A stretch of DNA of 64,000 bases from Burkholderiaceae bacterium (GTDB lineage Bacteria; Pseudomonadota; Gammaproteobacteria; Burkholderiales; Burkholderiaceae_E): contig JAMLIR010000011.1 of NCBI GenBank assembly GCA_023954045.1, forward strand, positions 1 to 64,000, in the 5' to 3' direction. A program made the translations under genes and the position numbers. Numbering within the stretch: the stretch's first letter is position 1; every line of letters begins with the position of its first letter. The notes under the pieces were generated by a model. That model was not told the DNA's origin. It saw only the letters and a list, made by a program, of their open reading frames with translations, and ran no database searches. Below, piece by piece: positions 2,744 through 50,663 of the stretch.

Positions 2744-5041
2744 TCAGCCAGCGCTCTCCCAACCGCCGCCGCGGCACCGCCGATGAACGACCGGTACTGC
2801 ATCGCCCTCGATCGCCAGCAAGTGCAGCCATCCGTGGTCAACGAGCCGGCGCACCGTCTCGTGGGCAGCGAGCACCTCGTCGATCGCCTCGCGCGGGGCT
2901 TCGACGAAGACCGACAGCCGCCGCGGCGTGTGGCGCAGCCGCTCGCCATCGTGCACCGATTGCCATGGCAGCCCGATTCGCAGGTCGCCGCCGTTGCCTT
3001 CGAACACGCCGATGCCGCCGCCGACCACGTTGTGCAGCAGCTTGTTGCCGGCGCCCTGGCGCTGCGGATCGACGCTCGAAGCGAGGTACTGCAGGTTGAT
3101 CCAGTGCGCGACGACGACCGGCGCGGTCAGGATGAGCGTCAGCACGCTGCGGTCGGCATCGAGCCGATGGTCGTAGTCGTGCAGGAAGACGCGGCCGCCG
3201 AGGTTCGCGCCCCGCGTGCGCGCGCGTGGGGCGGCGACGAATGCGGCGTTGTCGGCCAGCGCCCATTCCGGGCGCGTCTCGGCCCAGTGCGCGGCGCGCT
3301 CGCGCAGGCGGGTCAGCAGCGCCGGTGCCGGCAGCGCGGGCAGGCCGAGGCCCGGGGCGCGCTCGGCGCGCGCCGCGTCGCCGGCCCGGGCGAGCGCACT
3401 GCGCAGCGCCCCCAGCGCGCCGGCATGTGACGGCGGCAGCACGTCGGTGTCGAACAACCGGACTTCGTCGGTGGTGGTGTTGTGCAGACCGGCGAGAAAC
3501 CAGGTGCCGTCCGGGATCGCGAGGCCTTGCGCAGCCAGCGCCTTGCGCACTGCAGGGTCGTTCAGCAGCGCGGCCAGCGCACGGGCGTTGACCTCGCCGC
3601 TGCGGCCGCCGCAGGCGCCGCAGTCCAGTCCGGCGGCATGCGCGTTGTTCGCGCTCTGCCCGCCGTGGCCGCACAGCAGAACGAGCGGCGCGAAGCCCTC
3701 GACGAGCCCCATCGCGCGCAGGATGCCGGCCGCCAGCCCTGCGCCCGCCTCGGCATCGAGCGCCAGCCGCGGGCGAAGCGCGCATGCCTCGTCGCGCTCG
3801 AGGCCGGCCTGCGACCAGTCCGGTTCGGCGTCGGTCCGCGGCAGGCTCGCGCGCAGCAGCGATCCGGCATAGAGCACGCCGCACGCCTCGACGAACGAGA
3901 ACCCAGTCGCCGGCGTGCCGCGCCAGCCGTCCCACGACGCGGCTGCGGCGAGCCGACCGCGTCGGCGTCCGGCCAGTGCTTGCGAAAGAGAGCGCTCCTC
4001 GGGTTCCTCGTCGACCGTGAGCGCAGGTGCGAGCAGCCCCGGCAGCTGCGGCTGGCGCCACCCGGTCCCGAGCGGCCGATGGGCGATCGGCAGCCCGAAG
4101 AAGCCGGCGAAGCCGCGCGTGGCAATCGTCGGGTCGGCGCCTTCGAGCGCGCGACGCAAGACTTCGCTGCGCACGTCGATGCAGAACACCGCCTGCACGG
4201 TCGGCGCCACCGGCGCGCGTGCGCTGGGGCGCGACATCGCCGCAATCACCTCGGCCTGCAGCTGCCCCTCCTGCGCCTGCATCCGCTGCCAGCCGGCATG
4301 CTGGCGCGCGCGCTCGGCGGTGATCGCCGCTTCGATGCCGACCCACCCCTGCGCCCATTCGCGCACCGTGGCCGCGGGCAAGGCGTCGGCGAGCAGCGCG
4401 TCCCAGCAGGCGCGGATCGCGAGCAACTCGGTGAGTCGCGCGTCGTCGCCGCCGGCCAGCCGCGCCTGCCAGCGCGGCCACGCGCAGGCGGCGGCCCACC
4501 CGTTGAGGTCGAGCACCCATGCCGTCAGGCATGCCACGTGGCCGTCGGCCGGCACGCCGAGGCGTGCGAGCGCATGGCCGATCGCGGTCATCGCGTCGTC
4601 GTCCAGCCGGGCGATCGCCGCCAGTGCCGCCCGTCGCCCCTGCGGCCAGTCGAGCCCGCGGTCGGCCGCCAGGCGCGCGAGCCAGCTGCGGTACAGGCCG
4701 CCGTCCTCGCCGTCCACCGGCATGTGCCAGCGCGCCTGGCCCGCATCGAAGTGCGCCGCGCAGTGCCGGCTGATCTGGTGCACGACAGTGTCGCGCCGCC
4801 CGGCGAGATCGGCCAGCAAGGCGCGCCGCTGCACGGCCGCATCCGGCAGCAGCCGCATCCCTGCCAGCACGCCGACCGCGGCCGCGGCCTCCTCGATCGG
4901 ACGGTCGATCCAGCCCCAGTGCGGGTTGACGGCGATGAAGCGGTCGAGCGGCCAGCTCGGCGCGATGCGGTCGCAGGCCTGGGCCACGGCGTCGGCGAGC
5001 GCGTGGGCCTGGTGGTCGACGACGGAAAGCGGGGCGTTCAT
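2744..5041 (-). CDS. dabA: DabA, inorganic-carbon accumulation subunit (DUF2309)
   Basis: A 765-residue soluble subunit of the DAB system. DAB is a membrane-energised, carbonic-anhydrase-like machine that hydrates CO2 one way to build up cytosolic bicarbonate. The four residues expected of the beta-CA-like zinc site are visible: Cys287 and Asp289 in VFCIDVRSE, His459 in LLCGHGGQS, and Cys474 in GLDCGACGG. The 15-residue spacing between the His and the second Cys matches characterised DabA. The ATG (5039-5041) overlaps the stop of the membrane partner by 1 nt (TGATG), so translation is coupled. The frame is open further upstream, but that part lies inside dabB and is not taken as coding. Confidence 0.93.
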   Translation of the reverse strand: MNAPLSVVDHQAHALADAVAQACDRIAPSWPLDRFIAVNPHWGWIDRPIEEAAAAVGVLAGMRLLPDAAVQRRALLADLAGRRDTVVHQISRHCAAHFDAGQARWHMPVDGEDGGLYRSWLARLAADRGLDWPQGRRAALAAIARLDDDAMTAIGHALARLGVPADGHVACLTAWVLDLNGWAAACAWPRWQARLAGGDDARLTELLAIRACWDALLADALPAATVREWAQGWVGIEAAITAERARQHAGWQRMQAQEGQLQAEVIAAMSRPSARAPVAPTVQAVFCIDVRSEVLRRALEGADPTIATRGFAGFFGLPIAHRPLGTGWRQPQLPGLLAPALTVDEEPEERSLSQALAGRRRGRLAAAASWDGWRGTPATGFSFVEACGVLYAGSLLRASLPRTDAEPDWSQAGLERDEACALRPRLALDAEAGAGLAAGILRAMGLVEGFAPLVLLCGHGGQSANNAHAAGLDCGACGGRSGEVNARALAALLNDPAVRKALAAQGLAIPDGTWFLAGLHNTTTDEVRLFDTDVLPPSHAGALGALRSALARAGDAARAERAPGLGLPALPAPALLTRLRERAAHWAETRPEWALADNAAFVAAPRARTRGANLGGRVFLHDYDHRLDADRSVLTLILTAPVVVAHWINLQYLASSVDPQRQGAGNKLLHNVVGGGIGVFEGNGGDLRIGLPWQSVHDGERLRHTPRRLSVFVEAPREAIDEVLAAHETVRRLVDHGWLHLLAIEGDAVPVVHRRCRGGGWESAG

Positions 5042-41945: not shown

Positions 41946-42437
41946 ATGTACGAGACCTCGAATGCGGCGCTGGGCGAGCCGACCACCGGGACGGCGCTCG
42001 CAGCTGCGCTCGAACCCTCCACGATGCCGGGTGCGGGCGCGGTCGAGGTGACGAGCGTGCCGGGCACCCCGGCGCCGGGCGGCGAGCCGGCGCGTGCCGG
42101 CGCGCGACCCGGCGTCGTGCAGCTGGCGATCCGTGAGAAGGCCGCGCTGTACGCGGCCTACATGCCGTTCGTCGAAGGCGGAGGGCTGTTCGTGCCGACG
42201 ACGCGCACGGTGAGCCTCGGCGACGAGCTGTACCTGATCCTGTCGCTGATGGACGAGCCGAACAAGCTGCCGGTCACCGGCAAGGTGATCTGGATCACCC
42301 CCGCCGGGACGCCCGGCAGGCAGCAGGGACTCGGGGTGCAGTTCTCGAAAGACGATTCGGGCGCCCAGGCCCGCAATCGCATCGAGACCCTGCTGGGCGG
42401 CACGCTGAAGGCCAGCCGGCCGACGCACACGATCTGA
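41946..42437 (+). CDS. pilZ: PilZ-domain protein (type IV pilus PilZ type)
   Basis: A 163-residue protein. Residues ~55-160 form the PilZ domain: VVQLAIREKAALYAAYMPFVEGGGLFVPTTRTVSLGDELYLILSLMDEPNKLPVTGKVIWITPAG, then QQGLGVQFSKDD. The RxxxR c-di-GMP motif is absent, as in the PilZ proteins needed for type IV pilus assembly. The first ~55 residues are an Ala/Gly/Pro/Thr-rich extension longer than in typical ~115-residue relatives, so a start at an internal codon is possible. The holB-pilZ-tatD order is conserved in related bacteria. Confidence 0.9.
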   Translation: MYETSNAALGEPTTGTALAAALEPSTMPGAGAVEVTSVPGTPAPGGEPARAGARPGVVQLAIREKAALYAAYMPFVEGGGLFVPTTRTVSLGDELYLILSLMDEPNKLPVTGKVIWITPAGTPGRQQGLGVQFSKDDSGAQARNRIETLLGGTLKASRPTHTI

Positions 42438-42550
42438 GCCCGGGCGGCGCGCGGCATCGGGTCGCAACGCGTCCCGCCAGGAGAGCCGACCGCGGCGAGG
42501 GGCTGCAGCGCCTGCCGATACAATGGCAGGTCAACCCCGCGAACGCGGCC

Positions 42551-43333
42551 ATGCTCGTCGATTCCCACTGCCATCTCGATTTCCCCGAGCTCTCGGGGCG
42601 CCTGGACGAGGTGCTTGCCGCGATGTCGTCGCACGACGTCGGGCACGCGCTGTGCGTCTGCGTGACGCTGACCGAGTTCGATCGCGTGCTCGAAGTCGCG
42701 GCGCGCGACGATCGCCTCAGCGCCTCGGTGGGCGTCCATCCCGACTATCCGGACACGGTCGAACCGGACGTCGCGACGCTGGTGCGCCTGGCCGATCACC
42801 CGAAGGTCGTCGCGATCGGGGAGACCGGGCTCGACTACTACCGGACGCAGGGCGACACCGAGTGGCAGCGCGAGCGCTTCCGCGTGCACATCCGTGCCGC
42901 GCGGCAGGCGCGCAAGCCGCTGATCGTGCACACCCGCGCCGCATCCGCCGACACGCTGCGCCTGATGCGCGAGGAAGGCGCCGACGACGCCGGCGGCGTC
43001 ATGCACTGCTTCACCGAAGACTGGGAGACGGCCCGCGCGGCGCTCGACCTCGGTTTTCACATTTCGCTCTCCGGGATCGTCACGTTCAGGAATGCGGCGG
43101 CGTTGCGCGAGGTCGCCGCGCGCGTCCCCGAGGACCGGCTGCTCGTCGAAACCGACGCGCCGTATCTGGCGCCGGTGCCTTTTCGCGGCAAGACCAACGA
43201 GCCGGCGTTCGTGCGCTTCGTCGCGGGCTGCCTGGCGGAAGTCCGGCAGCAGAGCCCGGAACGGATCGCCGAGATAACTACCGACAATTTCTTCCGACTT
43301 TTCAGTAAATTGCAGAATCCTTTGAATGCGTAA
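42551..43333 (+). CDS. tatD: TatD-family metal-dependent deoxyribonuclease
   Basis: A 260-residue TIM-barrel hydrolase. Metal ligands are visible: His6 and His8 in DSHCHLD, Glu in VAIGETGLDYYR, His in KPLIVHTRAA, His in GGVMHCF and Asp in LLVETDAPYLAP. TatD proteins act as 3'-5' exonucleases in DNA repair; the family also includes D-aminoacyl-tRNA deacylase-like members. An A+T-rich TACAAT about 28 nt before the start may serve as -10. The end overlaps the ankyrin gene by 8 nt. Confidence 0.94.
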   Translation: MLVDSHCHLDFPELSGRLDEVLAAMSSHDVGHALCVCVTLTEFDRVLEVAARDDRLSASVGVHPDYPDTVEPDVATLVRLADHPKVVAIGETGLDYYRTQGDTEWQRERFRVHIRAARQARKPLIVHTRAASADTLRLMREEGADDAGGVMHCFTEDWETARAALDLGFHISLSGIVTFRNAAALREVAARVPEDRLLVETDAPYLAPVPFRGKTNEPAFVRFVAGCLAEVRQQSPERIAEITTDNFFRLFSKLQNPLNA

Positions 43334-44126
43334 CTTCAAGTTACGAGGAAACATTCGGCGCCGGATCGCCGAGTCGCTCGCCGTCGTGCTGGCGTTCGGT
43401 GCGCTCGTGCCGCCTGCCGGCGCCGCATCCGCGCGCAGCGCGGGAGCGCCGCAGGAGTTCTGGGAGGCTCTGGGGCGCGACGACGTCGACCGGGTGCAGA
43501 CCCTGCTGCTGCGCGGTACCGACACCAACGCCGCGCACCCGGAACTGGGCCCCGCGATCGTCGCGGCCGCACGCGAGAAGGCGTGGAAGACCCTCAGGCT
43601 GCTCGCCGGCCTCGCGGGCACGAAGATCGACGCCCCGAACAAGCGCGGCGAGACCGCGCTGATGATCGCGGCGCTGCACGGACAGCTCGACATCGTCCAG
43701 CTGCTGGTCAAGCGCGGCGCCGAAGTCAACCGGCCGGGCTGGACGCCGCTTCACTACGCGGCGACCAACGGCCACGTGGCGGTCGTCCGCTACCTGCTCG
43801 ACGAGAACGCGTACATCGACGCCCAGTCGCCGAACCGGACCACGCCGCTGATGATGGCCGCCCGCCACAAGCATCCCGACGTGGTCAGGCTGCTGATCGA
43901 AGCCGGTGCCGATCCGACGGCACGCAACGAAGCCGGCATCGACGCGGCCGGCTACCTGCAGCGCCAGGGCGAGCCCGAACTGGCCGCATGGGTGCGCGAA
44001 CGCGCAGCCGACTACGCGCGGCGCTACGGCACGCTCGAGCGGCCGCGTACCGTCGAGGCGATCGAGCAGGAGAAACGCCGTTCCGAGCGCCTGGACGCGC
44101 CCCGGTTGCCCGGCGCGCGCGATTGA
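43326..44126 (+). CDS. periplasmic ankyrin-repeat protein
   Basis: A 266-residue protein with a signal peptide (RRRIAESLAVVLAFGALVPPAGAASA) and at least three good ankyrin repeats: KRGETALMIAALHGQLDIVQLLVKRGAEVN, PGWTPLHYAATNGHVAVVRYLLDENAYID and NRTTPLMMAARHKHPDVVRLLIEAGADP, plus degenerate repeats on either side. The C-terminal ~50 residues are charged (YARRYGTLERPRTVEAIEQEKRRSE). Ankyrin proteins of this position (after tatD) are common in Burkholderiales, and the partner is unknown. A hairpin follows at 44,149-44,166. Confidence 0.9.
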   Translation: MRNFKLRGNIRRRIAESLAVVLAFGALVPPAGAASARSAGAPQEFWEALGRDDVDRVQTLLLRGTDTNAAHPELGPAIVAAAREKAWKTLRLLAGLAGTKIDAPNKRGETALMIAALHGQLDIVQLLVKRGAEVNRPGWTPLHYAATNGHVAVVRYLLDENAYIDAQSPNRTTPLMMAARHKHPDVVRLLIEAGADPTARNEAGIDAAGYLQRQGEPELAAWVRERAADYARRYGTLERPRTVEAIEQEKRRSERLDAPRLPGARD

Positions 44127-46596: not shown

Positions 46597-47478
46597 TCAG
46601 GCGTTCGCCGCGAGCAGGTCGATTAGCGAGGGGACCGCCGATTGCCCGTGGGCACGCGCCGCGTGCGCGTAGGTCTGGCGCACGGCCCCGGCCGTCGCGC
46701 GCGCAGCGCCGAGTTCGTCCGCCATCGCGGTGTAGTAACCCATGTCCTTCGACGCGTTGGCGATCGTGAACCGGAAGCCCGAGGCGTCGCGCGCTTCGAG
46801 ATAGGGGCGCATCCGCTCGAGCACCACGCCACCGCCGCCGCCGTTGGCCAGTACCTGCACGAAGACTGCGGTGTCGACACCGGCGCGTTGCGCGCAGGCC
46901 GCCGCTTCGGCCAGCACGGTCGCGAAGCCGAGCGACACGTAGTTGTGCAGCAGCTTGAGCTGGTGCCCGGCGCCGACCGGGCCGGCGTGGACGACGTTCT
47001 CGGCGAAACTTGCGAGCAGCGGGCGGCACTGCGCGAAGAGTGTCGGCTCGGCACCCACGATCAGGTTCAATCGTCCCTCGGCGGCTTCCTTCGGCGTGCG
47101 CGTCATCGGCGCATCCATGAACCGGCCGCCGGCCGCCGCGACCGCCTCGGCGAGGCGCAATGTCGACGAGGGAATCGCGGTCGAGCAGTCGATGACGATG
47201 CCTCCAGGCCGCAGGCCGGCGAGCACGCCATCCTCGCGCAGCAGCACGTTCTCGACCTCCGGCGAGCCGGTGACGCACAGGATCACCACGTCGGAGCCGG
47301 CAGCCAGTTCGGCGCATCCCGACACCGGGCGTGCGCCGGCGGCCACGAGGTCCTGCGTCGGCTGGTTGCCCGGGTGCTCGAGGAACGCCAGCGGATATCC
47401 ACGCCGCAGGACGTTCGTCGCAATGCCGTGGCCCATCAGGCCCACGCCGATCATGCCGATCCGCTGCTTGTCCGCCAT
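46597..47478 (-). CDS. NAD(P)-dependent beta-hydroxyacid dehydrogenase (3-hydroxyisobutyrate dehydrogenase family)
   Basis: A 293-residue oxidoreductase. The Rossmann motif GMIGVGLMGHGIA is at about 8-20, CVTGSPEVENVLL and GGIVIDCSTAIPSSTLRLAEAV give the family core, DAPMTRTPKEAAEGRLNLIVGAEP is the substrate loop, and the catalytic Lys is in GAGHQLKLLHNYVSLG. Members act on 3-hydroxyisobutyrate, tartronate semialdehyde or succinic semialdehyde. The exact substrate is not evident. The start ATG (47,476-47,478) is 140 nt from the dif site. Confidence 0.92.
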   Translation of the reverse strand: MADKQRIGMIGVGLMGHGIATNVLRRGYPLAFLEHPGNQPTQDLVAAGARPVSGCAELAAGSDVVILCVTGSPEVENVLLREDGVLAGLRPGGIVIDCSTAIPSSTLRLAEAVAAAGGRFMDAPMTRTPKEAAEGRLNLIVGAEPTLFAQCRPLLASFAENVVHAGPVGAGHQLKLLHNYVSLGFATVLAEAAACAQRAGVDTAVFVQVLANGGGGGVVLERMRPYLEARDASGFRFTIANASKDMGYYTAMADELGAARATAGAVRQTYAHAARAHGQSAVPSLIDLLAANA

Positions 47479-47617
47479 GTCCCGCTTCCTTGGCTGCGAT
47501 GCGCGCCACTTTAAACCCCGGTGAACCGCGGTCGCTTCACGCGATGGGGGGGCAACTGGTTCAGCGTCCTGGTCGGCGGTGTGGCGGGTTCGAGGTCGTG
47601 GGTCTGGTCTCGCCCTA

Positions 47618-47645
47618 ACTGCGCATAATGTATATTATGTCAACT
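47618..47645. other. dif: dif site: XerC/XerD chromosome-dimer resolution site at the replication terminus
   Basis: A 28-bp site in an otherwise empty 208-bp spacer. Compared with the Escherichia coli dif site it is identical at 24 of 28 positions, including the whole stretch TGCGCATAATGTATATTATGT (47,620-47,640 minus the outer bases). The XerC half is 47,618-47,628, the 6-bp centre TGTATA 47,629-47,634 and the XerD half 47,635-47,645. The core CATAAT-GTAT-ATTATG is a perfect dyad in a region of very high GC, so chance occurrence is negligible. The four differences fall in the outer bases of the two half sites. Confidence 0.93.
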
Positions 47646-47686
47646 GCTAGATCGAAGCATCCGGCCGCACAGCGCCGGACGCCGCG

Positions 47687-49408
47687 TTACCGCCGAGCCA
47701 GGAGGCGCATCAGCTCCCGCAGCGGCCGCGCATTTGCGACGTCGCGCCGTTCGAGCCACCCGCGGCGCGCCTGCCCCACGCCGAAGCGAAGGTTCGCGAA
47801 CTGCGCGACGTCGTGCGCATCGGACGTGATCGCGACCAGCACGCCCTCGTCCTTCGCCATCCGGCAGTGCGTGTCGATGAGGTCGAGCCGCTCCGGGTGC
47901 GCATTGAGCTCCAGGCAGACGCGCCTTTCCTTCGCCTTGCGCATCACCTGCAGCATGTCCACGTCGTAGGGCTCCCGCTCACCGATCAGCCTTCCGGTCG
48001 GGTGCGCAAGCAGGCTCACGTTGGGATTCTCGAGCGCGCGCAAGATGCGCTGGGTCTGCTGCGCGCGGCTCAGGTCGAACCGGCTGTGCACGGCCGCGAT
48101 CACGAGGTCGAGCCCGGCCAGCGCGCGGTCGGGCAGGTCCAGCGTGCCGTCGTCCAGGATGTCGACCTCGATGCCCTTGAGCACGCGGATTCCCTTTGCG
48201 CGCGCGTTGAACCGGTCGATCGCCTCGCCCTGCTCGCGCAGCCGCTTCTCGTCGAGGCCGTGCGCCATTCCCTGGCGGCGCGAGTGCTCGGTGATCGCCA
48301 GGTACTCCAGCCCGAGCGCGCGCGCCGCCGCCGCCATCTCGTCGATCGTCTGGTGGCCGTCGGTGGCGGTCGTGTGCGCGTGCAGGTCGCCGCGCAGGTC
48401 GCCCAGCTCGATCAGCTTCGGCAGGCGACCCGCCCTCGCCGCGTCGATCTCGCCGCGATCCTCGCGCAGCTCCGGAGGGATCCAGGGGAGCTCGAGCGCC
48501 GCGTAGACGGACTCCTCGGTGTCCCCGGCGATGCGCGTGTCGCCGCGAAAGACGCCGTACTCGTTGACCTTCAGGCCCCGCTCCTGGGCCAGGCGCCGCA
48601 ACGCGACGTTGTGCGCCTTCGAGCCGGTGAAGTACTGCAACGCCGAGCCGAAGCTCTCCGGAGCGAGCAGGCGCAGGTCGACCTGCAGGCCGCCGCGCAG
48701 CCGCACGCTGGCGCGCGTGCCGCCGCGGGACAGCACCTCCTCGACCTCGGCAAAGCCGGTGAACTGCTCGATGGCCTGGTTCGCCTTGCGCGCCGTGACC
48801 AGCACGTCGAGGTCGCCGACGGTCTCCCGCATGCGCCGAAAGCTGCCGGCGACCACCACGCGCTCGACGCCCCTTGCCCGCTGCAAGTGCGCCACCAGCG
48901 CGTCGGCGTACTGGCCGGCCACCGCGAGCTTGAAGCGGCGCTCCTTCGACAGGTGCGCCGCCACGGCAGACTCGATCCTGCGCTCGGTCTTCTCGCCGAA
49001 CCCCGGCAACGCGCGGATCCGCCCGTCGCGCGCGGCGCGCAGCACCTGCTCGGGCGTCTGCACTTGAAGGTCGTGCCACAGGCTCGCGACGCGCTTCGGG
49101 CCCAGCCCCGGCACCTGCAGCAATTCGGTGACCGCCGGCGGCATCTCGCGGCGCAGGCGTTCGAGCAGTTCGCAGGTGCCCGTGGTGACGATCTCGTGGA
49201 TCTTGCCGGCCAGGTCGGCCCCGATGCCGCGCAATTCCGTGAGGTCGCGGCCCTGCTCGATCATCTGCCCGACGTCCCCGCTGAGTTCCTGCAGCGTGCG
49301 GGCGGCATTGCGGTAGGCATTGATGCGAAAGACGTTGGCCCCCTGGATGGCGAGCCTGTCCGCCAGTTCTTCGAAAACCGCCGCCACCGCCAGATTCCGG
49401 ACCGGCAT
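47687..49408 (-). CDS. polX: PolX, DNA polymerase X family with PHP exonuclease domain
   Basis: A 573-residue repair polymerase. An N-terminal helix-hairpin-helix region (LLQVPGLGPKRVASLWHDL; RIRALPGFGEKTERRIESAV) precedes the nucleotidyltransferase site with SFRRMRETVGDLDVLV and LQVDLRLLAPE supplying the three carboxylates. The C-terminal PHP domain begins near residue 335 (GDLRGDLHAHTTATDGHQTIDEMA), with ITEHSRRQGMAHGL, GIEVDILDDG and ITSDAHDV as metal motifs. It fills short gaps in base excision repair. The ATG at 49,406-49,408 is chosen as the start of the conserved N-terminus. It is the first gene past dif. Confidence 0.94.
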   Translation of the reverse strand: MPVRNLAVAAVFEELADRLAIQGANVFRINAYRNAARTLQELSGDVGQMIEQGRDLTELRGIGADLAGKIHEIVTTGTCELLERLRREMPPAVTELLQVPGLGPKRVASLWHDLQVQTPEQVLRAARDGRIRALPGFGEKTERRIESAVAAHLSKERRFKLAVAGQYADALVAHLQRARGVERVVVAGSFRRMRETVGDLDVLVTARKANQAIEQFTGFAEVEEVLSRGGTRASVRLRGGLQVDLRLLAPESFGSALQYFTGSKAHNVALRRLAQERGLKVNEYGVFRGDTRIAGDTEESVYAALELPWIPPELREDRGEIDAARAGRLPKLIELGDLRGDLHAHTTATDGHQTIDEMAAAARALGLEYLAITEHSRRQGMAHGLDEKRLREQGEAIDRFNARAKGIRVLKGIEVDILDDGTLDLPDRALAGLDLVIAAVHSRFDLSRAQQTQRILRALENPNVSLLAHPTGRLIGEREPYDVDMLQVMRKAKERRVCLELNAHPERLDLIDTHCRMAKDEGVLVAITSDAHDVAQFANLRFGVGQARRGWLERRDVANARPLRELMRLLARR

Positions 49409-49520
49409 CGCTCCCCTCCCGTCTGGCGCCATTCGACCACGGTCGAGGGGTCGCCGGAAAGCGCGAATCGAGGTGCGCGGACGACGGTCCGGGGCCGAGG
49501 CGGCCGCGGTCAGTGTCCGG

Positions 49521-50663
49521 TCATGCGACCAGCATGCGGTCGCTGACGTACCCGAGGTGGTGGTCGGCGTCGCCGAACGTGGCGTTGATCGTCGTGAGGC
49601 GCTTGAAGTAGTGGCTGACGCCGAGCGCGTCGACCACACCCATCCCGCCATGCAGCTGCACGGCCTCCTGGCCCACGCGACGCGACGCCTGCCCGACGTG
49701 GGCCTTGGCCGCCGAGATCGCCAATCGCCGCTCGGCCGCATCGTCCGAATCGGCGCGAACCGCCGCCAGCGTCGCCATCGAGCGAGCCTGCTCCGTCGCG
49801 ACCACCATGTCGACCATCCGGTGTTGCAGCGCCTGGAAACTGCCGATCGGCTGGCCGAACTGCTTGCGCACCTTCAGGTATTCGAGCGTCGCCTCGTTGA
49901 GGGCGGACATGATGCCCACGGCCTCTGCGCACAGGGCCGCGATCGATCGATCGATGGCGCGCTCGACGATCGGTAGCGCGCGATCCCTCTCCCCCACCAG
50001 GGCATCGGCCCCTACCCGCACTTCGGCGAGTTCGACGTCGGCAGCACGCCTGTCATCCTGCGTCGGGTAGCCGATGACGCGGACTCCGGGCGCCTTCGAA
50101 TCCACGATGAAGAGCGAGAGGCCGGCGTCGTCGCGCAGGTCGCCGCTCGTGCGTGCGGAGACGATCAGCTTGTCTGCGGTGTCTCCGCCGAGCACGACAG
50201 CCTTGGCACCGTCGATCACGTAGCCGCTGCCCTCACGCCTCGCCGTCGTCGCGACATGGTTCGACTCGTAGCGCGTGCCGGGCTCGTGGTGAGCGAGGGC
50301 CATCAACAGGGCCCCTCCGGCGATGAGCGGCAACACGGCCCTTTGCTGCAAGTCGCTGCCGGCGTCGCGGATCAGGCCACCGCACAGGACGATCGTCGTC
50401 AGATACGGTTCGACGACCAGGCCGCGCCCGAGCATCTCCATGACGAGCATGGTGTCGACCGCAGTGCCGTCGGCACCGTCGAGGTGGCCCGGAAAGGGCA
50501 TGGCGAGAACGCCCAGGTCGGCGAACTTCGACCACACACTGCGACTGAATCCGTCGGCGGACGCGATGAATGCCCGGCGCTTCTCGAACCCGTATTCCCT
50601 GCCGATGAAGCGGCGCAGGGTTTCCTGCAACGCCAGTTGTTCTTCGTCGTAGTCGAAATTCAC
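49521..50663 (-). CDS. acyl-CoA dehydrogenase, small subunit (PimD-like)
   Basis: A 380-residue acyl-CoA dehydrogenase-family protein of the type found as the smaller partner in two-subunit enzymes such as pimeloyl-CoA dehydrogenase: MNFDYDEEQLALQETLRRFIGREYGFEKR, ALAHHEPGTRYESNHVATTARREGSGYVIDGAKAVVLGG and EAVQLHGGMGVVDALGVSHYFKRLTTINATFGD. The usual catalytic Glu of the C-terminal helix is not at its expected place, and the partner subunit encoded just upstream has one. It lies 24 nt after that gene and ends the minus-strand operon headed by the HAAT binding protein. Confidence 0.9.
   Translation of the reverse strand: MNFDYDEEQLALQETLRRFIGREYGFEKRRAFIASADGFSRSVWSKFADLGVLAMPFPGHLDGADGTAVDTMLVMEMLGRGLVVEPYLTTIVLCGGLIRDAGSDLQQRAVLPLIAGGALLMALAHHEPGTRYESNHVATTARREGSGYVIDGAKAVVLGGDTADKLIVSARTSGDLRDDAGLSLFIVDSKAPGVRVIGYPTQDDRRAADVELAEVRVGADALVGERDRALPIVERAIDRSIAALCAEAVGIMSALNEATLEYLKVRKQFGQPIGSFQALQHRMVDMVVATEQARSMATLAAVRADSDDAAERRLAISAAKAHVGQASRRVGQEAVQLHGGMGVVDALGVSHYFKRLTTINATFGDADHHLGYVSDRMLVA

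What the first reader, a model, noticed from the sequence alone, without database searches (positions are those of the whole stretch)
47618..47645. Canonical dif site: the window crosses the chromosome terminus
24 of 28 positions equal the Escherichia coli dif site, including 21 consecutive bases across the XerC-centre-XerD junction. It is the most A+T-rich dyad in a ~70% GC window and lies in a non-coding spacer. This fixes the replication terminus and explains local gene orientation.
Basis: partly seen in the sequence, partly recalled or inferred. Interest (0 to 1): 0.85.

Follow-up and report, generated by a model that had tools for sequence, protein, structure and literature searches.

The report
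Ordinary chromosome dif site
This is a standard dif site, the 28-base spot at the far end of a bacterial chromosome where fused sister chromosomes are cut apart before division; it is genuine but ordinary.

Summary
Window 47618-47645 matches the E. coli dif 28-mer at 24 of 28 positions, 21 in a row. It lies in a 208-bp spacer, overlaps the most A+T-rich 28-mer of the window, and is the only such site found in the 4.02-Mb draft genome.

The cumulative GC skew of the 137-kb contig peaks about 0.6 kb from dif. The octamer GGGCAGGG, a form of the FtsK-orienting sequence KOPS, points towards dif in 19 of 19 copies. The genome encodes XerC, XerD and an FtsK gamma domain. Of 18 genomes of the genus, this one included, 14 carry one site each. 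In one congener sampled skew changes sign around dif and around dnaA.

Refinements: dif marks the dimer-resolution pole and does not prove where forks meet, and it explains gene orientation only in part.

One small oddity: against a close relative, homology stops at the XerD-side end of dif and resumes 52 bp on, where the relative has about 1.7 kb. Ordinary member of a known kind; low interest.

The parts
47618..47645 (+). dif site, 28 bp, read XerC arm to XerD arm
   Evidence: 24 of 28 identities to the E. coli dif; only match in the draft genome at up to 3 mismatches
47618..47628 (+). predicted XerC-binding arm (11 bp; arm boundaries recalled from E. coli)
   Evidence: positions 1, 2, 4 and 8 vary among 14 genus sites, the window's own included
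47629..47634 (+). predicted central hexamer TGTATA
   Evidence: position 15 of the 28-mer is A in 7 and G in 7 of 14 genus sites
47635..47645 (+). predicted XerD-binding arm (11 bp)
   Evidence: positions 18-23 invariant in 41 of 41 aligned sites
47479..47686 (.). 208-bp intergenic spacer that holds dif
   Evidence: between the Pfam-supported ORFs 46597-47478 and 47687-49741
46597..47478 (-). 3-hydroxyisobutyrate/6-phosphogluconate dehydrogenase-like gene flanking dif
   Evidence: PF03446, PF14833
47687..49741 (-). PolX-like DNA polymerase gene with a PHP domain, flanking dif (start probably internal)
   Evidence: PF14716, PF14791, PF02811; many relatives match from about residue 110 on

Best explanation
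This is the chromosome's dif site. When homologous recombination fuses two sister chromosomes into a dimer, FtsK at the division septum pumps DNA along polar GGGCAGGG-type sequences towards dif. It then activates XerD, which with XerC makes a crossover at the central hexamer and returns two monomers. Shown here: the site, its single copy in the draft, its position at the skew and KOPS switch, and the presence of the three protein genes. Inferred from established knowledge of E. coli: binding, activation and strand exchange.
For: 24 of 28 identities with E. coli dif. Single match in the draft genome. 14 of 18 genomes of the genus and 92 of 200 genomes of the order have a match at up to 2 mismatches of 21, the window's own genome counted in both. 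The four differences from E. coli fall at positions 1, 2, 24 and 27, all of which vary among 14 genus sites. Skew maximum of the contig at 47,046. GGGCAGGG points to dif in 19 of 19 copies on the contig and in 17 of 17 over 100 kb of G001. XerD and XerC pass the NCBIfam cut-offs of TIGR02225 and TIGR02224. FtsK_gamma matches at 2.5e-26. In G002 the sampled skew is positive in 3 of 3 stretches before dif, negative in 11 of 13 between dif and dnaA, and positive in 4 of 4 after dnaA. dif lies about 2.12 Mb from dnaA in about 3.9 Mb (G002) and about 2.20 Mb in about 4.3 Mb (G016).
Against: No recombination was measured. XerC passes its cut-off only narrowly (336.6 against 335.15 bits). In G002 GGGCAGGG within 50 kb of dif is 11 towards and 2 away, 2 of 13 sampled stretches between dif and dnaA have the wrong skew sign, and after dnaA the octamer is 3 to 2, no clear bias. 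GGGNAGGG on the contig is 22 towards and 2 away. 4 of 18 genus genomes and 108 of 200 order genomes gave no match at 2 mismatches; three of the four are below 90% complete and one (G014) is 95% complete. I did not look for more divergent sites in those.
Confidence: 0.97

Rival explanations
1. It is an attachment-site copy left by a dif-integrating element (a Xer-exploiting phage or island) and not the resident chromosomal dif.
For: Such elements are known to use dif (passages of PMC2731167). Against G010, homology stops at 47641, inside the XerD-side end of dif, and resumes at 47694, where that relative has about 1.7 kb.
Against: One site in the draft genome. Apart from dif itself read on either strand, the best dif-like match in the window and within 10 kb of dif in 12 relatives is 16 of 24. 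None of the 12 Phage_integrase matches of the genome lies on this contig. Of 10 window ORFs scanned around dif, 7 have Pfam families, none of them a phage or integrase family, and 3 have none. The G010 segment holds a universal stress protein gene.
Confidence: 0.02
2. It is a chance A+T-rich match with no function.
For: None found.
Against: 0.00 expected by shuffling. One copy in each of 14 of 18 genus genomes. Sits at the skew and KOPS switch.
Confidence: 0.005

Closest known systems
Escherichia coli dif/XerCD/FtsK
   Same: 24 of 28 bases, 21 in a row; XerC, XerD and FtsK gamma genes present; GGGCAGGG polarity (the KOPS motif itself is recalled)
   Different: differs at positions 1, 2, 24 and 27, which also vary among 14 genus sites
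dif sites of Burkholderiales listed by Carnoy and Roten 2009 (PMC2731167, passages seen; author names recalled)
   Same: non-coding, A+T-rich, near the cumulative GC-skew maximum, conserved XerD arm; the Bordetella pertussis site in its table is AATTCGCATAATGTATATTATGTAAAGT
   Different: minor arm differences; distance to the skew maximum about 0.6 kb on this contig, against a published median of 7277 bp on whole chromosomes

Membership tests
proteobacterial dif (XerCD) site | 28-bp sequence with two 11-bp arms and a 6-bp centre, and a conserved XerD arm | tested here: met
proteobacterial dif (XerCD) site | single copy on the chromosome | tested here: met
   one match at up to 3 mismatches in 4.02 Mb; the genome is a draft, 97% complete
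proteobacterial dif (XerCD) site | non-coding and low G+C | tested here: met
   spacer 47479-47686; 9 of 28 G+C in a window of about 70% G+C
proteobacterial dif (XerCD) site | palindromic structure | tested here: met
   imperfect: 7 of 11 arm positions pair
proteobacterial dif (XerCD) site | close to the cumulative GC-skew maximum | tested here: met
   about 0.6 kb on the 137-kb contig; replicon scale only by sampling in congener G002
proteobacterial dif (XerCD) site | XerC and XerD encoded in the genome | tested here: met
   XerC only just over its cut-off
proteobacterial dif (XerCD) site | FtsK-orienting sequences converge on it | tested here: met
   GGGCAGGG 19 of 19 towards dif, GGGNAGGG 22 of 24
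proteobacterial dif (XerCD) site | XerCD binds and recombines the site, FtsK-dependent | not testable with these tools
   needs an assay

The most novel reading that the evidence does not exclude
The XerD-side flank of dif turns over faster than the XerC-side flank in this genus, with gene gain and loss starting exactly at dif, perhaps through past Xer-mediated insertion or excision that left one dif.
Probability: 0.1. Interest if true: 0.3.

Novelty: new member of a known kind. Interest (0 to 1): 0.1.

Why it matters
It orients the window: the terminus pole of a Burkholderiales-type chromosome lies at 47.6 kb, which gives strand context for the neighbouring genes. It raises no new question about the Xer system.

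Tried and rejected
Second dif, for a chromid or an integrated element: none at up to 3 mismatches in the draft genome. Tandem or partial dif at the other end of the G010 segment: the best match other than dif itself is 16 of 24, no better than in the other loci compared. The G010 segment elsewhere in this genome: nine short matches of 33 to 96 bases, with 40 of 598 first-look candidates scored. RNA features: no Rfam family at gathering score; one tRNA-Gly at 3292-3382, far away. A 67-bp stretch of G001 that includes dif aligns to window 47617-47685 at 79.7%, so some XerD-side flank may be shared with that relative; it is too short to build on. Folding the 60 bases right of dif gave a hairpin beside the end of the PolX-like gene, without a shuffle control; I drew nothing from it. 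A scan for A+T-rich dyads asked for 9 of 11 paired arm positions and so left dif itself out; its 53 hits hold 17 or more G+C of 28.

Gene-orientation test: my crude GC3-based caller kept 94 genes on the contig, 18 plus and 12 minus left of dif, 15 plus and 49 minus right of it (Fisher p = 0.001). It misplaced at least one gene: it chose a minus ORF at 42158-43729 over the plus-strand TatD gene at 42551-43333 that Pfam supports. The counts are therefore rough.

Full report
What is there. Positions 47618-47645 read ACTGCGCATAATGTATATTATGTCAACT. Against the E. coli dif 28-mer, recalled and then found in E. coli IAI39, 24 of 28 positions agree and 47620-47640 agree for 21 in a row. A blastn of a 46-base stretch around it finds a short match in 5346 of 5426 E. 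coli genomes, median one place per genome; no place covers 80% of the query. The IAI39 match lies between a hipA pseudogene and a hypothetical-protein pseudogene, with no feature under it. Shuffled windows give 0.00 expected matches of the 21-mer at up to 3 mismatches.

Uniqueness. The window is the start of contig C3 (137,215 bases) in a 50-contig, 4.02-Mb, 97%-complete draft genome. A 24-mer at up to 3 mismatches, and a second version with three positions left open at up to 3 mismatches, find this site and no other.

Conservation. Of 18 genomes of the genus, the window's own included, 14 have one site each at up to 2 mismatches of 21; among those at least 90% complete and at most 5% contaminated, 10 of 11. 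Of 200 genomes drawn from the order at a completeness minimum of 90, again with the window's own and two congeners among them, 92 have a match; one (G034) has two places, both close to contig starts, and one (G141) also has a reversed-pattern control hit. I aligned 41 sites: 14 from the genus, the window's own included, and the 27 further order sites for which a locus was returned, not all 92. Positions 18-23 (XerD arm) are invariant in 41 of 41, and the window's four differences from E. coli (positions 1, 2, 24, 27) are at variable columns. By the flanking PolX-like protein the three most similar named records are Burkholderiaceae ACE_PRO50 (91% identity), Burkholderiales 70-64 (86%) and Lautropia SCN 69-89 (83%), among the best 80 of 452.

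Position. On the whole contig the cumulative GC skew rises to 615 at 47,046 and falls to -677 near the far end. GGGCAGGG occurs 10 times left of dif on the plus strand and 9 times right of it on the minus strand, with none the other way; in a scan of octamers it is among three tied at the lowest binomial p, 1.9e-6. The wider form GGGNAGGG is 22 towards and 2 away. Over 100 kb around dif, GGGCAGGG is 17 towards and 0 away in G001, and 11 and 2 in G002; the skew maxima of those stretches lie 1.7 and 3.8 kb from dif. In G002, with 20 stretches of 20 kb sampled along a 3.25-Mb contig, skew is positive in 3 of 3 stretches before dif, negative in 11 of 13 between dif and dnaA, and positive in 4 of 4 after dnaA. 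GGGCAGGG plus/minus counts in the three parts are 9/1, 4/26 and 3/2. dif and dnaA lie about 2.12 Mb apart in about 3.9 Mb in G002 (3 contigs) and about 2.20 Mb apart in about 4.3 Mb in G016 (4 contigs); genome sizes are rounded by the tool.

Machinery. The genome has 12 matches to Phage_integrase, 11 over the cut-off and none on contig C3. I scanned the best two with NCBIfam: XerD (377.6 bits, cut-off 329.6) and XerC (336.6, cut-off 335.15); the other ten were not named. There is one FtsK gamma domain and one DnaA.

Surroundings. dif lies in the spacer 47479-47686 between two minus-strand genes. Within 10 kb of dif in 12 relatives (10 of the genus, 2 of the family), by tblastn at E up to 1e-20, the TatD gene is on the XerC side in 11 of 12, the ankyrin-repeat gene in 10 of 12 and the dehydrogenase gene in 6 of 12; the PolX-like gene is on the XerD side in 3 of 12. 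The PolX-like gene ends about 40 bp from dif here, and lies about 1.7 kb away in G010, 5.2 kb in G004 and 8 kb in G005. Between the window and G010, homology (91.3% on the left, 94.9% on the right) stops at 47641 and resumes at 47694. No second dif-like site marks the G010 segment, so I do not claim a Xer-mediated event; only this one close pair shows the break at single-base scale.

Literature. PMC2731167 (Carnoy and Roten 2009, author names recalled; passages seen) describes proteobacterial dif sites by the features tested here and lists Burkholderiales examples. PMC3025954, a prediction of dimer resolution sites over bacterial genomes, and a Xer review, PMC5357621, were seen in the search listing with the start of the abstract only. 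I made three paper searches and did not look for this particular genome in print.

Verdict. It is an ordinary dif site, strongly supported and of low interest.

Noticed in passing
window 47641-47694 against L149 (G010): Homology with a close relative breaks at the XerD-side end of dif and resumes 52 bp later; the relative has about 1.7 kb there with a universal stress protein gene.
   Followed up: partly
L145 9049-9996 minus (G004): An ORF that starts at dif and runs away on its XerC side has a helix-turn-helix domain (PF13384); it looked to me like a possible mobile-element remnant, from recall only.
   Followed up: partly
L148 (G008): None of the seven window neighbour genes searched is found within 10 kb of dif in this congener at E up to 1e-20, so its dif neighbourhood differs.
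   Followed up: no
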